From: Chitinivibrionales bacterium
GTDB lineage: Bacteria; Fibrobacterota; Chitinivibrionia; Chitinivibrionales; WJKA01
Length of the DNA stretch: 64,000 nt
Assembly (NCBI GenBank): GCA_014728215.1
Contig: WJLZ01000152.1
Location: forward strand, 1 to 64,000
Direction: 5' to 3'
Positions 11,235-60,365 of the stretch are shown in pieces; the first letter of the stretch is position 1, and every line of letters begins with the position of its first letter. Position numbers and translations under genes: made by a program. Below the pieces are notes generated by a model, which made no database searches, was not told the origin of the DNA, and saw only the letters and a program-made list of their open reading frames with translations.

Positions 11235-11286
11235 TCGTGTGCTCGTGTGCTCGTGTGCTCGTGTGCTCGTGTGCTCGTGCGCTCGT
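11235..11286. repeat. Tandem repeat, 8-bp unit, 6.5 copies
   Basis: TCGTGTGC is repeated head to tail six and a half times, with one substitution in the sixth unit (TCGTGCGC). It lies between the stop of polA and the start of the AIM24-family gene. The unit is not a multiple of three and shows no sign of being translated. Copy number is probably variable through slippage. Confidence 0.9.
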
Positions 11287-53680: not shown

Positions 53681-54094
53681 TCATTTTTGTGCGCGAGATT
53701 TCATATGTTTTACAATGGCCCCTACTCCATTTGCCCTGGAAGGCGAGAGGTTGGCCCGCAAACCGGTTCGTTCGATAAAATAGAGGTCGGCAGAAGCAAT
53801 ATCCCGGGGCGTTCGAGCATTGAGCACCCGGAGAAGAAGAAATAAAATCCCTCTGATAATCTGAGCATCACTGTCGGCCCGAAACTCAAGACGCTCTCCC
53901 TGGTTATTACAGGTAATCCATACTTTTGACTGACAGCCCGGAAGCGAATTCTCATCGTTTTTCTCATCCTCCGCAAGACCATCGAGTTTTTTCCCCTGAT
54001 CAATCAGATACTCATATTTCTCAAGCCAGTCCTCAGCCGCGGCCATCTCGCGGATAATCTCATCCTGTATTTCAGCAATAGATCTGTTTTCCAT
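53681..54094 (-). CDS. sufE: SufE-family sulfur acceptor
   Basis: A 137-residue protein matching SufE. The acceptor Cys is in NSLPGCQSKVWI, preceded by WLEKYEYLIDQGKKL and followed by the RGILFLLLRVLNARTP region. It takes persulfide from SufS and passes it on. It begins 55 bases after sufS with an AAAAGGA site. No sufBCD scaffold genes are nearby, which fits a role in delivering sulfur to the adjacent rhodanese protein rather than Fe-S assembly. Confidence 0.93.
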   Translation of the reverse strand: MENRSIAEIQDEIIREMAAAEDWLEKYEYLIDQGKKLDGLAEDEKNDENSLPGCQSKVWITCNNQGERLEFRADSDAQIIRGILFLLLRVLNARTPRDIASADLYFIERTGLRANLSPSRANGVGAIVKHMKSRAQK

Positions 54095-54149
54095 ACCACA
54101 TCCTTTTTTAATGCCCTGCAGTACCCGAAGCTTTCTTCAATTTTATCTC

Positions 54150-55370
54150 CTATCGACCCAACAATGCCTGTACCCGGGGAATCGCTTCAATTAACCGATC
54201 GATCTCCCATCGGGTATTATAAAAAACAATGCTTGCCCTGAGAGCCCCTTTAACGCCAAGATGACGCATAAGCGGTTCGGCGCACATCGTTCCAGTGCGA
54301 ACCGCAATGCCGAGCTTATCAAGAACAGCGCCGGCATCATAGGGATGAATCCCATCAAGGCTCAACGAAACAGCGCCACCCCGGCTCGGAACATCAGCGT
54401 AAACATTCAACCCCTCGCAGCGCCCCAATCCATCCACTGCATATCGAAGCAGCTTCTGTTCGTATGAGGCAATCTCGGTAATTCCCAGCGACTGGACATA
54501 CTCGAGTGCTGCATGAAGGCTGATCGTTGCCCCGATGTTTGTGGTTCCTGCCTCGAATTTGAGTGGTAACGACGCGTAGGTTGTCTTTTCTAAGGTTACC
54601 TTTTCGATCATTCCTCCCCCGCCCTGCCATGGCGGCATCCGGTCGAGCCACTTTTCTTTGCCGTACAATACCCCGATACCTGTTTCAGCATAAATCTTAT
54701 GCCCCGAGAAAGCCAGGAAATCACAATCCAGCGAAGTAACATCCACGGGCATGTGCTGAATCGCCTGAGCAGCATCGATCAATACCGGCACATCATGCTC
54801 ATGAGCAGTTTCGATCACCTGCCTGACCGGATTGATAACCCCTGTCACATTGGAAACCCAGGTAAGGGCGACCAGTTTTGTTTTCTCCGAAATAAGATCC
54901 TCGAATGCATCCAGATCCAGCTCGAGCGATTCGGTAAGAGGAATCACTTTCAGTGTCGCTCCCGTTCGTTCACAGAGAAGCTGCCAGGGAATAATGTTGG
55001 AATGATGCTCCATTACGGAAATGATGATTTCATCACCGGCCCCGACGAACGCTTGGCCAAAGGAATAGGCGACAAGATTGATCGATTCTGTTGTTCCGCG
55101 GGTAAAGAGTATTTCGTGGGCATGACCGGCCTTCAGAAAATGCTGTACCGCCACCCGGGCATTTTCATAGGCCTCACTCGCCTGTTCGCTGAGAAGATGG
55201 ACCCCGCGGTGAATGTTGCTGTTCTCCTTACGATAAAACTCAGAAACCCGGTCAAGAACATTCACGGGCTTCTGGGTAGTTGCAGCATTATCGAGGTAGA
55301 TCAGCGGTTTGCCGTATACCTGCTGCTGAAGAAGCGGAAAATCATTCCGTACTCTGTCGACATCGATCAT
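54150..55370 (-). CDS. sufS: Cysteine desulfurase SufS
   Basis: A 406-residue group II cysteine desulfurase. LIYLDNAATTQKPVNVLD opens the protein, the PLP Lys is in LAFSGHKIYAETGIG, and the persulfide Cys in RTGTMCAEPLMRHLG. It removes sulfur from cysteine to form a protein persulfide. It lies between the histidine methyltransferase (13 bases upstream) and sufE. Confidence 0.95.
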   Translation of the reverse strand: MIDVDRVRNDFPLLQQQVYGKPLIYLDNAATTQKPVNVLDRVSEFYRKENSNIHRGVHLLSEQASEAYENARVAVQHFLKAGHAHEILFTRGTTESINLVAYSFGQAFVGAGDEIIISVMEHHSNIIPWQLLCERTGATLKVIPLTESLELDLDAFEDLISEKTKLVALTWVSNVTGVINPVRQVIETAHEHDVPVLIDAAQAIQHMPVDVTSLDCDFLAFSGHKIYAETGIGVLYGKEKWLDRMPPWQGGGGMIEKVTLEKTTYASLPLKFEAGTTNIGATISLHAALEYVQSLGITEIASYEQKLLRYAVDGLGRCEGLNVYADVPSRGGAVSLSLDGIHPYDAGAVLDKLGIAVRTGTMCAEPLMRHLGVKGALRASIVFYNTRWEIDRLIEAIPRVQALLGR

Positions 55371-55383
55371 TGAACGCCTTTTT

Positions 55384-56385
55384 TTAAGGTTTGACCATGT
55401 ATACCAGAGAAAACCATTTCAGCTGATCGGTGAAAACATGCCGTATTTCAAGACCACTGCTGTGGGTAAATTGCGCGACATGGGATTCGGTAAATTTATG
55501 TGAATTTTCGGTATGAATTGTCTGGCCCTGGCGCATACGAACCGGTACTGTCAGGTATGGACTGGTGATAACCAGTTCTTTGTTTGCTGCAAGATGCATT
55601 TCGACACGCTGTTTACTGCTGTTGTAAAATGCCCGGTGATCAAAATCGGAGAGATTAAAATCCGTATCGATATGCCGGTTAACAACCGTGAGGATATTCC
55701 GGTTGAACGCGGCGGTAATATTGCGACTGTCGTTGTAGGCAGCTTCGAGTACACTCCTGTCTTTAACCATATCAAGTCCTAAAAGCAGCATATCCCCCGG
55801 TTGCATGACAGATGCCACGGCGGTGCAAAAGGAAAGCGCCTGGTCGCGCTCCAGATTTCCAAGGGTGCTGCCGAAAAAACAGAAAAACCGCCTGGCACCG
55901 GATGGAATCATGTGAAGCTGGGTGAGAAAATCGGCAATCAACCCGTGAATATGCAGGCCGGGAAACTTTTCGATCAGAATCCGTGCAGAATCCTCTACAG
56001 CAGCACGACTCACATCAACGGGAAAATACCTGACCGATTCCCGTTCATACCACGGGATTGCATTGAGAAGAAGCGAAATCTTCGAACAATCACCGCTTCC
56101 AAGTTCAACAAGATCGATATCGCTCAGGGTGTCACCCAATGCCGGAGATGCTTCTTGGAGGAGTTGCTTTTCTATTTTCGGAGGGTAATACTCCGGGAGG
56201 TGCGTGATCTCTTCAAAGAGCTTTGAACCGGTATCATCGTAAAAAAACATCGAGTTTATATACATCTGCGGTGCGGTAAGTCCATCGATAATGATTTCAC
56301 TTATCCTGGCATTATCGATTCTCGACAACACATCTTCGATGACAACCGTTTGGCGGGAATAGGAAGAAGTTTTATTCGGATTCAT
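55384..56385 (-). CDS. egtD: L-histidine N-alpha-methyltransferase (EgtD/EanA type)
   Basis: A 333-residue SAM-dependent enzyme that trimethylates histidine to hercynine. The family phrases MFFYDDTGSKLFEEITHLPE and YYPPKIEKQLL are at the start, DLVELGSGDCSKI is the SAM loop, and FFCFFGSTLGNLERDQAL and LLLGLDMVKD follow. A GGAGG site precedes the ATG. No egtB sulfoxide synthase is present; instead the upstream gene is a multi-rhodanese protein, as in the anaerobic EanA/EanB route of Chlorobium. This gene would be EanA in that scheme. Confidence 0.9.
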   Translation of the reverse strand: MNPNKTSSYSRQTVVIEDVLSRIDNARISEIIIDGLTAPQMYINSMFFYDDTGSKLFEEITHLPEYYPPKIEKQLLQEASPALGDTLSDIDLVELGSGDCSKISLLLNAIPWYERESVRYFPVDVSRAAVEDSARILIEKFPGLHIHGLIADFLTQLHMIPSGARRFFCFFGSTLGNLERDQALSFCTAVASVMQPGDMLLLGLDMVKDRSVLEAAYNDSRNITAAFNRNILTVVNRHIDTDFNLSDFDHRAFYNSSKQRVEMHLAANKELVITSPYLTVPVRMRQGQTIHTENSHKFTESHVAQFTHSSGLEIRHVFTDQLKWFSLVYMVKP

Positions 56386-56424
56386 ATCAAGGAGTCCTCC
56401 CCTTGTGTGGTATATTTTTAATGA

Positions 56425-57734
56425 TTACATTAACGGCTCATTCTGAGGCCCCCCTGTCTCACAGGGATTCCCCGGATCGTTACTCCATTCAAACCATCCG
56501 CCGTCAAAAACAGAAACCCGGGGCCAGCCTAAAAGCCAGGCATTGAAGAACGCCTCACTTCCGCGCCATCCGGTACCGCAGTAGAAGGCATTGTGTTTGT
56601 CGGGAGTTATTCCCGCCATGGCCCATCGCTTTTGGATCTCGGGATATTCGCGGGTGGTATGATCGGGATTGCGGTAATTTTCCATATGATAGGCATCACT
56701 GCCGCAATTGCCGAATACGGCCCCCGGTATTCTTCCTTTTTTTTCGATATAATTATACCCGCTGACTTCCCCGATATACTCGCGCCACGAACGAACGCAC
56801 ACCAGGTTTGCATCACTGGAACGCAGCATTTCCTTTGCCTGCGGCATATCAACCGCAAGTTCGGGCCTGCCGGGAATGGAGGCCCCGAATTTATCAACAG
56901 GCGTTCTGGAAACAGCTCCTGTTTCGGTATCAAAACCGGCATCCAGCCACGCCTGCAATCCGCCGTTGAGCACCCGGACATCCTTGACCCCTGCATAGAG
57001 CAGAATAAATGCACACCGCATGGCTCCCAGATGTCCTGCACTGCTCCCCGGAAAGGGATCGTTATTGTCGGGGAAAGAAAACCGGCCATAGAGAACGACG
57101 GTTGTCTCATGTCCTATTCCCAGCCGGGTACAAACCTGTTCGAGTTCTTCCGGCGAACGGCGGTTCCAGGTTTCCGGAGATTCCAGCTGGTTGGTATCCA
57201 GATCGATTGCTCCCGGGATATGCCCCTGGTGATGAGCATCCGGATTACGATAGTGAGCGTGACAAATTACATAGTCGTTATTCTCCACCCCGGGTGCGGT
57301 TCCAGTTTCGATTAATTCCTTGACCCATTGCGGAGGAACGAGCCGGTGATATCGGCTAAGCTTTTCGAGAGGGAGCCCAGGCTCGCCGGACCACTCCCGG
57401 ACAAAAGAGTCGTATATGACAATATCCTTGTATCCTGCACGGAAAAACTGACGGGCCGCTTTTTCGGCCTCCACCGCAGAGTATCCATAGATAATAACCT
57501 GCTCCCGGGGATCGATACCTTTCGAACGGACAATTTCGATCCAGTCGATATACCGGAGCCACTTTGCCGGGATATTCCGTGCGCCGGGGATATGCCCACC
57601 TCGTGATTCGCCATCCATTCTCCACCCGTTATAGGCATCCACAGGCCGTATATCGATTAACTGCCATGCTTTCGATCAAGTTTGTCTTGAAGCTCAGTCG
57701 TTGATATTCGTTGAACGGGGTCTTTCTCTTTCAT
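56425..57734 (-). CDS. EanB-like multi-rhodanese sulfurtransferase with an apparent 5' frameshift
   Basis: Three rhodanese-like domains in a row make up at least 405 residues. Only the third has an active-site cysteine, in YCGTGWRGSEAFF (Cys codon 56580-56578). GGHIPGARNIPAKW, QGHIPGAIDLD and KKGRIPGAVFG mark the domain starts. The open frame begins in mid-domain at 57642 (GTG). The likely true start is the ATG at 57734, which has AAAGGAG upstream and encodes ISTTELQDKLDRK, but that frame stops at 57660. One added base near 57668 would restore AWQLIDIRPVDAYNGW. EanB inserts sulfur into hercynine under anaerobic conditions; that role is inferred from domains and from the egtD neighbour. Confidence 0.7.
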
Positions 57735-57761
57735 TGCCGCTCCTTTTGCAAAGTTGTCTTT

Positions 57762-58502
57762 TCAGGCTGCCAGAAGAATCAGTGAATACACGACAGCGCC
57801 GATAAAAAAAGAAAGAAAATGACTTTCTCGTTCTTCGGGAAGTTCTTCCTTGAGAACATTCAGCACAATCGAACCGGCGACAAAGGCGGTGAGAGTGCTG
57901 ATAACCAATTCATGTATTTCACTTAATAAGCCTATACTCCATCCCAATATAATCGATGCTGCAAGGAACCATCGACCCCGGGTCGCGTAGAGATGTTTGT
58001 GATCCTGACGCAGGCTGTTATCATTGACCAGAAAATGTAAACCGATGGCAATTGAATAGAAGAGGAGTTCGTCGCCTGTGCGGGTAAGCAGAAGATAGCC
58101 CATAAGTCCGTTATATAACGAAAAGGAACCGATATGGAGCCAGAATGCGCCCTGGGCCGGCGGCTCGTTTGGGCCTCGTTTGCGCCGGTGAGTACGGATA
58201 TGGCGTTCGAGTCCGTAGAACGTGACCAGGCCCAGAAGGGCAATGAAATAGGCGTTATAATGGATAAAATCGGGCAGGAAAACAGGGGGCTGTTTCAGTA
58301 TTTTGTGATGTTTCGCCAGATCGGGTAAGAGGTGCATGAAAGCATAGGCAACCGAAATACCGCCGGCAAAGGAAAGCCACCGGCTTCGGGGAATTCGCTC
58401 GAGCGTCGTGAGCTTTGCCCCGAAAAGATGAACTAAGGCTAAAACTGCTGCCGCTATAAAAGTAGCGATTCTGAATAGAGTAGGAGTCATTGCTTCGTCC
58501 AT
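57762..58502 (-). CDS. ZIP-like multi-pass membrane protein
   Basis: A 246-residue inner-membrane protein with about eight hydrophobic segments. FAGGISVAYAFMHLLPDLAK and the closing AFVAGSIVLNVLKEELPEE resemble ZIP metal transporters, although the typical His-rich loop is short (HLYATRGR, KHHKIL). Metal transport is therefore possible but not shown. An AAAGGAG site precedes the ATG. It is the first gene of the presumed ergothioneine operon, 27 bases before the rhodanese gene start, and is divergent from the ABC exporter. Confidence 0.65.
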   Translation of the reverse strand: MDEAMTPTLFRIATFIAAAVLALVHLFGAKLTTLERIPRSRWLSFAGGISVAYAFMHLLPDLAKHHKILKQPPVFLPDFIHYNAYFIALLGLVTFYGLERHIRTHRRKRGPNEPPAQGAFWLHIGSFSLYNGLMGYLLLTRTGDELLFYSIAIGLHFLVNDNSLRQDHKHLYATRGRWFLAASIILGWSIGLLSEIHELVISTLTAFVAGSIVLNVLKEELPEERESHFLSFFIGAVVYSLILLAA

Positions 58503-58518
58503 ATCTCTCCTTTAATGT

Positions 58519-58534
58519 TTGTAAATTTTTACAA
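58519..58534. promoter_or_regulatory. 16-bp perfect palindrome between divergent genes
   Basis: TTGTAAATTTTTACAA reads as TTGTAAA-TT-TTTACAA, a perfect dyad. It lies 17 bases upstream of the ZIP-like ATG and about 77 bases before the exporter start, so a bound regulator could control the ergothioneine operon, the exporter or both. No regulator gene is nearby. Confidence 0.45.
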
Positions 58535-58610
58535 TATTCATTTGTTTTTATCGAATTACTATCCTGTTTTTTTACTCCACTTTCAAAAAAAAGGACAATT
58601 TCTCATCTCA

Positions 58611-60365
58611 ATGGCATCATCCGGTTCTCTCTCCAATCTTCGCAGGGCGTTCGTTTTTGCGCGACCTCATCGATGGTATCTTATTGCAGTCCTCTTCTTT
58701 ACAATCATTATCGCGGCGGCGAGTTCATTTGAGCCGTTGATTATGAAATATATATTCGACGGATTCGGTGAGGATGCTGCGCTTCGCACGATGTTCATGG
58801 GGGTACTCAGCCTGATGCTTCTGGGCATTATCAAAGAAGGCGCCACGGCGTTGTCTACCTGGCTCAGCTGGCGAACCCGCCTTGACATCCACTATTCGCT
58901 GCTCAATCAGACCGTTGAACGTATTCATCGCTTCCCCATCGAATTCCACCGAAGCGAGGGGGTTGGAGCGATCATGACCCGACTCGACCGGAGTATCCAG
59001 GGCTTTATTACCGCAATCAGCGAGATTTCCTTTAATGTCCTTCCGGCCCTCTCATATTTAGTACTCGCCCTGGTCATGATGCTGAAACTCGACTGGCGTC
59101 TGACCCTCTGCGTGATCTTTTTCACCCCCCTTCCCGCGATCATCGCAACCTTTGCCGCACCCCGCCAGATCAGACGGGAAAAGACACTTTTTAAACGCTG
59201 GGCACGAATTTACTCGCGGTTCAACGAAGTCCTTGCGGGGATTATGACTGTCCGGAGCTTTGCCATGGAAAATGTCGAAAAAGAACGGTTCCTTCGTGAT
59301 GTCAACACCACCAACAACATTGTCGTCCGCGGCGTCCGCTTCGACTCGGGCGTTGGTGCAATTCAGAATTTTATCATGCTCCTCGCTCGAATTACGGCGA
59401 TCGGCCTGGGAGGCTACCTCGTTATTGAAGGTAAAGCAACTGTAGGAACCATGATCGCTTTCCTCGGCTATGTCGGCGGCCTTTTCGGTCCGGTCCAGGG
59501 GCTCACCGGCGTCTACAAAACGCTGCGTACCGCAAAAGTATCCATCGATCAGGTGTTTGGTATCCTCGACGCAGAAGATCATATCATCGACAGTCCCATG
59601 GCTCAGGATGTTCCGCCTCTTCGGGGGGATGTTCGGTTTCATCATGTGGATTTCGCCTATAAAAATTCCGAGCAGCTGCTTCACGATATCCATCTATCCG
59701 TGAAACCGGGCGAAAATATAGCGATTGTAGGCCCCAGCGGCGCAGGAAAGACCACACTGATGGCGCTTCTGCAGCGCTTCTACGATCCGACCGGCGGATG
59801 GATTGAAATTGACGGTATCGACATCCGGAACCTGAAACAACGGCAATTACGCAAACAGATCGGCGTGGTCCTTCAGGACGCACTCCTTTTCAACGAAAGT
59901 ATCCGGGACAATATCGCCTATGGCAAACCGACTGCCCATAATCATGAAATAGAACAAGCCGCAATCACCGCAAACGCTCATCGTTTCATAATGAAAATGG
60001 ATAAGGGCTACGATACCCTCGTTGGAGAACGGGGCGGACGATTGTCGGCGGGTGAACGGCAGCGAATTGCGCTTGCCCGGGCGATCCTCAAGGACCCTCC
60101 CATTCTTATTCTCGATGAAGCCACTTCCGCTCTCGATGCTGAAACCGAAACCCTGGTGCAGGATGCTGTCGAGCGGCTGATCAAGGGGCGTACTACCTTC
60201 GTGATCGCCCATCGCCTCTCCACGGTGGTCAATGCCGACCGGATACTGGTGCTCAAAGAGGGAACGATTATCGAATCCGGCACCCACGAACAGCTCTATT
60301 CCCGTCAGGACGGCTACTATGCATCGCTGGTAAATAAACAGACCCGTGGGCTTTTAGCGGCATAA
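58611..60365 (+). CDS. MsbA-like ABC exporter (fused membrane and ATPase domains)
   Basis: A 584-residue half-transporter. Residues 1-320 hold six membrane helices with coupling loops (HRFPIEFHRSEGVGAIMTRL). The ATPase domain has Walker A GPSGAGKTTLMALLQ, signature LSAGERQRIALARA, Walker B ILILDEATSALD and the H-loop AHRLSTV. I prefer the ATG at 58611 because it gives the normal start of the family; 32 upstream in-frame codons would overlap the palindrome region and have no ribosome site either. It probably moves lipids or glycolipids. Confidence 0.88.
   Translation: MASSGSLSNLRRAFVFARPHRWYLIAVLFFTIIIAAASSFEPLIMKYIFDGFGEDAALRTMFMGVLSLMLLGIIKEGATALSTWLSWRTRLDIHYSLLNQTVERIHRFPIEFHRSEGVGAIMTRLDRSIQGFITAISEISFNVLPALSYLVLALVMMLKLDWRLTLCVIFFTPLPAIIATFAAPRQIRREKTLFKRWARIYSRFNEVLAGIMTVRSFAMENVEKERFLRDVNTTNNIVVRGVRFDSGVGAIQNFIMLLARITAIGLGGYLVIEGKATVGTMIAFLGYVGGLFGPVQGLTGVYKTLRTAKVSIDQVFGILDAEDHIIDSPMAQDVPPLRGDVRFHHVDFAYKNSEQLLHDIHLSVKPGENIAIVGPSGAGKTTLMALLQRFYDPTGGWIEIDGIDIRNLKQRQLRKQIGVVLQDALLFNESIRDNIAYGKPTAHNHEIEQAAITANAHRFIMKMDKGYDTLVGERGGRLSAGERQRIALARAILKDPPILILDEATSALDAETETLVQDAVERLIKGRTTFVIAHRLSTVVNADRILVLKEGTIIESGTHEQLYSRQDGYYASLVNKQTRGLLAA

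What the first reader, a model, noticed from the sequence alone, without database searches (positions are those of the whole stretch)
53681..58502. Candidate anaerobic ergothioneine operon with its own sulfur donor (ZIP-like, EanB-like, EgtD/EanA, SufS, SufE)
Histidine methyltransferase beside a multi-rhodanese protein with a single CGTGWR active site is the pattern of Chlorobium EanA/EanB, which makes ergothioneine without oxygen. Here sufS and sufE follow directly, with no sufBCD, so they would charge the rhodanese with persulfide sulfur from cysteine. A ZIP-like membrane protein heads the unit. The complete five-gene set appears unreported to my knowledge.
Basis: partly seen in the sequence, partly recalled or inferred. 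Interest (0 to 1): 0.85.

Follow-up and report, generated by a model that had tools for sequence, protein, structure and literature searches.

The report
Anaerobic ergothioneine operon with sulfur-supply genes
Four neighbouring genes look like an oxygen-free assembly line for the antioxidant ergothioneine that carries its own sulfur-delivery enzymes, and the same four-gene set recurs in many unrelated anaerobic bacteria and archaea, pointing to cysteine as the sulfur source that has been uncertain for this pathway.

Summary
On the minus strand, eanB-eanA-sufS-sufE (57734-53681) is real. EanB is 62% identical to Chlorobium limicola EanB with all catalytic residues. EanA passes the EgtD equivalog cut-off. 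SufS and SufE keep their sulfur-carrying cysteines.

The ZIP-like gene is not part of the conserved unit.

The four-gene cassette recurs, same strand and often overlapping, in Fibrobacterota, Omnitrophota, Elusimicrobiota, Aminicenantes, Planctomycetota, Bacillota, Thermoplasmata and Methanosarcinales. In the window's order (40 genomes) SufE occurs in exactly the six genomes with EanB, and none of them has SufB/D. Starting instead from SufE in 186 Methanosarcinales-order genomes, all 27 with uncut context have the cassette. All sufS/sufE-linked EanBs form one clade without exceptions.

Best reading: SufS and SufE are a dedicated cysteine-to-EanB sulfur donor. Direct SufE-to-EanB transfer is inferred, not shown. 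Chlorobium-type eanAB lies outside this clade. I found no report of the linkage in the papers held, but the key 2017 paper could not be read. New variant of a known kind.

The parts
56425..57734 (-). eanB: three-rhodanese hercynine sulfurtransferase (ergothioneine synthase); frame change at about 57657-57677, C412-equivalent in CGTGWR
   Evidence: 62% identity over 406 aa to C. limicola EanB (PDB 6ktv, 609 bits, against 300 for YnjE); E345, Y353, C412, T414, R417 kept; frameshift
55384..56385 (-). eanA/egtD: L-histidine N-alpha-trimethyltransferase making hercynine
   Evidence: TIGR03438 above equivalog cut-off; 40% identical to M. smegmatis EgtD with Y39, Y56, N166, Y206, M252, E282, S284 equivalents kept
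54150..55370 (-). sufS: group II cysteine desulfurase (PLP lysine K225, H122/H123, catalytic C363)
   Evidence: TIGR01979 above cut-off; residues invariant in 17 linked SufS
53681..54094 (-). sufE: persulfide-accepting partner of SufS (C54 in GCQSKVWI)
   Evidence: PF02657 139.8 bits; C54 invariant in 23 of 23 linked SufE; the only SufE in the genome
57762..58502 (-). ZIP-like membrane protein, probably co-transcribed here but not part of the conserved cassette
   Evidence: PF02535 weak partial match; distant homologues only in L006/L007, on the opposite strand; structure model uninformative
57657..57677 (-). frame change within eanB (one base short relative to the other loci, in or near an A run)

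Best explanation
This is an oxygen-independent ergothioneine operon of the EanA/EanB kind with a dedicated sulfur donor. EanA trimethylates histidine to hercynine. SufS takes sulfur from L-cysteine as a persulfide on C363 and passes it to C54 of SufE. SufE delivers sulfane sulfur, directly or as a short persulfide or polysulfide, to C412 of EanB, which places it on the imidazole C2 of hercynine to give ergothioneine. The cassette eanB-eanA-sufS-sufE moves between phyla as a unit and defines one clade of EanB. It would make the pathway independent of environmental polysulfide, unlike the Chlorobium-type eanAB. Shown here: gene identity, conserved linkage, co-occurrence, absence of the SufB/D client. 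Known from literature: chemistry of EanA, EanB and SufS-SufE. Inferred: the SufE-to-EanB transfer step and ergothioneine production in these organisms.
For: (a) EanB 62% identical to the characterised enzyme with its catalytic residues; EanA above equivalog cut-off with EgtD substrate residues. (b) Contiguous same-strand cassette in at least 8 phylum-level groups including two archaeal lineages, intergenic distances mostly -4 to +30 bp. (c) In the window's order, SufE+ genomes = EanB+ genomes, 6 of 40, every SufE at the eanB locus; none of the 6 has SufB/D; 1/C(40,6) = 2.6e-7 if genomes were independent. (d) Reverse test from SufE in 186 Methanosarcinales-order genomes: 30 SufE loci; the 27 with uncut context are all eanB-eanA-sufS-sufE. 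(e) No SufB/D in cassette genomes G171, G173, G180, G195, G209; L007 and L014 lie on records titled 'chromosome'. (f) All 50 linked EanBs fall in one clade with no unlinked member; N408 50/50 against 7/61 outside. (g) The genome has NifS and NifU for Fe-S work. (h) E. coli IscS plus cysteine supplies EanB in vitro (PMC11767532, PMC9103826), and IscS charges the related YnjE in E. coli (PMC8931425).
Against: No biochemical or metabolite evidence. EanB C412 lies at the end of a 13 A tunnel argued to exclude a docked desulfurase, and polysulfide is a direct substrate in vitro (PMC9103826), so direct protein-to-protein transfer may not occur. Some linked genomes keep sufE but not sufS beside eanB, and have full SufB+SufD, so there SufE could serve two masters. 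The window's own eanB is frameshifted. The clade is only moderately supported (80/93 IQ-TREE, 0.946 FastTree). Only the best 80 of 422 EanB-like loci were sampled.
Confidence: 0.84

Rival explanations
1. SufS-SufE act only as a source of diffusible polysulfide or sulfide in the cell; EanB takes polysulfide, and no specific SufE-EanB contact exists.
For: Polysulfide is a direct EanB substrate, and the role of IscS in vitro was re-interpreted that way (PMC9103826).
Against: Exclusive co-inheritance of SufE with EanB, correlated divergence EanB-SufE r=0.66 (confounded by shared ancestry), and retention of sufE rather than sufS in two-gene versions suggest a specific partner.
Confidence: 0.3
2. 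SufS-SufE serve Fe-S cluster assembly (complete or minimal SUF) and their place beside eanB is incidental.
For: SufS-SufE are best known as SUF parts; some linked genomes have SufB/D.
Against: No SufB/D in the window genome or the other five EanB+ genomes of its order nor in five other cassette genomes; SufE absent from every EanB-minus genome of that order; the methanogen-order reverse test.
Confidence: 0.04
3. The rhodanese is a YnjE-like sulfur carrier for another pathway (Moco, thiolation), or acts on a different methylated heterocycle, and does not make ergothioneine.
For: YnjE shares the active-site residues; several linked loci lack eanA next to eanB.
Against: Much closer to EanB than YnjE (609 against 300 bits); an EgtD-family gene is adjacent or elsewhere in nearly all tested linked genomes.
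Confidence: 0.07
4. In this particular genome the locus is decaying: eanB is a pseudogene through the frameshift and the pathway is off.
For: One-base frame change separates a good RBS/start from the body of the gene; the junction is read in one frame in the other sampled loci; the one genus-mate genome held (77% complete) has no EanB.
Against: The other ~415 codons and all downstream genes are open and conserved; a single indel in a metagenome assembly is a common error; an internal GTG start could still give the catalytic domain.
Confidence: 0.3

Closest known systems
EanA/EanB anaerobic ergothioneine pathway of Chlorobium limicola (Clim_1148/1149)
   Same: Same two enzymes, same catalytic residues, adjacent genes, no oxygen-dependent step
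   Different: Adds sufS-sufE in the same operon; its EanB belongs to a separate clade (N336/N408 signature) from the Chlorobium/Bacteroidota-type EanB
SufS-SufE cysteine desulfurase pair of the SUF system
   Same: Group II desulfurase with its SufE acceptor, all key cysteines kept
   Different: No sufBCD in the operon, and none of the two-subunit SufB/D kind in the tested genomes that carry the full four-gene cassette; genetic client is EanB
E. coli YnjE charged by IscS
   Same: Multi-rhodanese protein with the same active-site set, receiving sulfur from a cysteine desulfurase
   Different: YnjE is assigned to molybdopterin sulfur supply; group I desulfurase without SufE; no adjacent EgtD
MES, metallopterin-dependent ergothioneine synthase of Caldithrix abyssi
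   Same: Works on the same principle: cysteine desulfurase dedicated to sulfurising trimethylhistidine without oxygen
   Different: There the desulfurase is NifS/IscS-like and fused to a metallopterin module; here it is a separate SufS with SufE, and the C-S bond is made by a rhodanese

Membership tests
EanB ergothioneine synthase | Full-length similarity to C. limicola EanB, exceeding that to other rhodaneses | tested here: met
   62% over 406 aa; 609 bits against 300 (YnjE) and 88 (next rhodanese)
EanB ergothioneine synthase | Catalytic C412, Y353, E345, T414, R417 | tested here: met
   All kept, but YnjE also has them, so necessary rather than sufficient
EanB ergothioneine synthase | Intact reading frame in this genome | tested here: not met
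   Frame change at about 57657-57677, absent from the other sampled loci; body of the gene is open
EanB ergothioneine synthase | Sulfurises hercynine to ergothioneine | not testable with these tools
   Needs enzyme assay or LC-MS
EanA/EgtD histidine methyltransferase | TIGR03438 above cut-off and histidine-pocket residues | tested here: met
   338.3 against 290.9; Y39, Y56, N166, Y206, M252, E282, S284 equivalents kept (numbering from memory of M. smegmatis EgtD)
SufS group II cysteine desulfurase | TIGR01979 above cut-off, PLP lysine and catalytic cysteine | tested here: met
   559.6 against 475.1; K225 and C363
SufE | PF02657 and catalytic cysteine | tested here: met
   139.8 bits; C54 23/23
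SUF Fe-S assembly operon | sufB/sufD with sufS/sufE | tested here: not met
   No PF01458 match in the genome; none in all six EanB+ genomes of the order
MES ergothioneine synthase | Metallopterin domain fused to the desulfurase | tested here: not met
   SufS is a stand-alone 406 aa protein
ZIP metal transporter | PF02535 over the full eight-helix fold with TM4/TM5 metal motifs | tested here: inconclusive
   39.1 bits, residues 35-108 only; canonical HNxxE/HExxH not evident by eye; model pLDDT 45, so no fold search was run

The most novel reading that the evidence does not exclude
A distinct, horizontally spread clade of EanB has a dedicated SufS-SufE sulfur relay, so that SufE's only task in whole orders (Chitinivibrionales-like Fibrobacterota, Methanosarcinales-type methanogens) is making ergothioneine. 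SufE docks on EanB and passes persulfide directly through a clade-specific interface (N336/N408 signature), settling that cysteine rather than polysulfide is the physiological donor.
Probability: 0.5. Interest if true: 0.78.

Novelty: new variant of a known kind. Interest (0 to 1): 0.66.

Why it matters
The physiological sulfur donor of the oxygen-free ergothioneine pathway is not settled in the papers read: IscS works in vitro, then was re-read as a source of polysulfide. A strictly co-inherited SufS-SufE pair names the donor for a large clade and makes the question directly testable, including in methanogens. It also shows that SufS-SufE can be wholly divorced from Fe-S assembly, so finding sufSE in an archaeon should not be read as evidence of a SUF system. 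And it extends probable ergothioneine synthesis to many uncultured anaerobic lineages, where its role cannot be quenching of oxygen by-products alone.

Tried and rejected
SUF operon reading: rejected by absence of SufB/D. Active-site residues as proof of EanB: rejected because YnjE shares them. Programmed frameshifting in eanB: not favoured, since no other copy needs it. Papers by Burn 2017 and Cheng 2020/2021 are not held. Text search for SufE with ergothioneine gave only unrelated papers. DUF427 with ergothioneine: none. Co-divergence correlations are weak evidence because shared ancestry is not removed. Promoter/terminator scan gave nothing clear. EgtB in the own genome was not searched for.

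Full report
WHAT IS THERE. On the minus strand at 58502-53681 lie five consecutive ORFs: a ZIP-like membrane protein, an EanB-like three-rhodanese protein, an EgtD-family methyltransferase, SufS and SufE. Profile searches confirm each. The rhodanese protein matches C. limicola EanB structures at 609 bits against 300 for YnjE and 88 for the next rhodanese. It is 62% identical over 406 residues and keeps E345, Y353, C412, T414 and R417. The methyltransferase is above the EgtD equivalog cut-off and keeps the histidine-pocket residues of mycobacterial EgtD. SufS keeps its PLP lysine and catalytic cysteine, and SufE its cysteine.

The natural start of eanB (ATG 57734 after AAAAGGAGCGGC) begins MKEKDPVQRISTTELQDKLDRKHGS and then meets a stop. 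The conserved body continues in another frame from AWQLIDIRPVDAYNGW. The other genome-contig loci (L062 is cut by its contig edge) read the junction in one frame. The lesion is therefore an assembly error or a recent mutation, and function in this genome is uncertain. The GTG at 57642 lies inside the first rhodanese domain.

THE LINKAGE IS REAL AND WIDESPREAD. Of 422 EanB-like loci found in species genomes the best 80 were fetched. eanB-eanA-sufS-sufE, same strand and contiguous, is present in Omnitrophota, Phycisphaerae, Thermoplasmata, Aminicenantes, Elusimicrobia, Methanolobus and Syntrophomonadaceae (one Thermoplasmata copy is cut by its contig end). A shorter eanB-sufS-sufE or eanB-sufE occurs in Ignavibacteria, Chitinivibrionales, Gemmatimonadetes and Caldithrix. 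Four further Fibrobacterota genomes carry the full cassette. After EanB/EanA, SufE and SufS are the commonest neighbours in 86 loci, always on the same strand. Gene spacing is mostly -4 to +30 bp, some larger overlaps reflecting mechanical start choice. Loci lacking a linked eanA usually have one elsewhere in the genome.

CO-OCCURRENCE. In the window's order (40 genomes) SufE is found in six genomes, which are exactly the six with EanB, each time at the eanB locus. None of these six has SufB or SufD. If genomes were independent the chance is 2.6e-7; they are not fully independent, but the six span three families and five genera. The window genome has NifS and NifU instead. The reverse test is independent of EanB: among 186 genomes of the order of the Methanolobus genome, 30 have SufE above the family cut-off. 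The 27 whose surroundings are not cut by a contig end are all eanB-eanA-sufS-sufE, one more shows eanA-sufS-sufE up to the contig end, and two are cut right beside sufE. In other cassette genomes SufB/D is missing (G171, G173, G180, G195, G209) or present as one lower-scoring protein (G168, G207, G210, G212), while genomes with only eanB-sufE linked mostly have the full pair. L007 and L014, whose genomes are G173 and G180, lie on records titled 'chromosome'.

ONE CLADE. In an 87-row tree all 24 linked EanBs, and no unlinked one, form a clade (UFBoot 80, SH-aLRT 93); Chlorobium EanB lies outside. With 26 methanogen sequences added, the clade has 50 linked rows and none unlinked (FastTree support 0.946). 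N408, four residues before C412, is asparagine in 50 of 50 against 7 of 61 outside. This suggests one origin of the association and later spread of the cassette across phyla, with sufS or eanA lost or moved in some lines.

HOW IT LIKELY WORKS. Known: EanA makes hercynine; EanB transfers sulfane sulfur from C412 persulfide to hercynine; E. coli IscS with cysteine can feed EanB in vitro, later re-read as polysulfide supply because C412 sits at the end of a 13 A tunnel (PMC9103826; PMC11767532). Group II desulfurases such as SufS need an acceptor such as SufE, and YnjE, which shares the EanB active site, is charged by IscS (PMC8931425). Inferred: SufS-SufE is the in vivo donor for this EanB clade, by direct persulfide transfer or locally made polysulfide. 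A plausible ecological reason is that Chlorobium lives with abundant polysulfide while the cassette carriers do not; this was not tested, and the gene neighbourhood of Chlorobium itself was not examined beyond eanA-eanB.

ZIP. The ZIP-like gene is 28 bp upstream of eanB and probably co-transcribed here. Its match is partial, its only relatives near other eanB genes are divergent and on the other strand, and the structure model was too poor to use. It is not part of the conserved unit.

NOVELTY. The enzymes and chemistry are known kinds. The dedicated SufS-SufE relay as a conserved, clade-defining part of the pathway is not mentioned in any paper I could read, but the founding paper was not available, so prior mention cannot be excluded. 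I rate it a new variant of a known kind.

Noticed in passing
L017, L037, L047, L063, L079 and ten other eanB loci: A 94-aa DUF427 (PF04248) gene recurs near eanB in 15 of 86 loci, in five of them directly downstream; no literature link to ergothioneine found.
   Followed up: partly
window 57657-57677: Frameshift in eanB not present in other sampled loci.
   Followed up: yes
L037, L059, L066: EanB-like matches with a stop inside the aligned stretch; possible pseudogenes or assembly errors.
   Followed up: no
L046, L052, L058, L064, L069, L070, L077 (Salinimicrobium): EanB also occurs in Salinimicrobium (Flavobacteriaceae), without linked eanA or sufSE; a TIGR03438 match lies elsewhere in the two genomes tested.
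   Followed up: partly
L138, L139 (Fibrobacterota outside the window's order): A sufS-sufE pair in genomes with no EanB match; upstream context not examined.
   Followed up: no
window 58515-60365 (+): Divergent ABC exporter-like gene starting within 13 bp of the ZIP-like start; no linkage to eanB seen elsewhere.
   Followed up: partly
window 11235-11286: 8-bp tandem repeat TCGTGTGC, 6.5 copies at 97%, just outside the 3' end of a large minus-strand ORF; possible phase-variable site.
   Followed up: no
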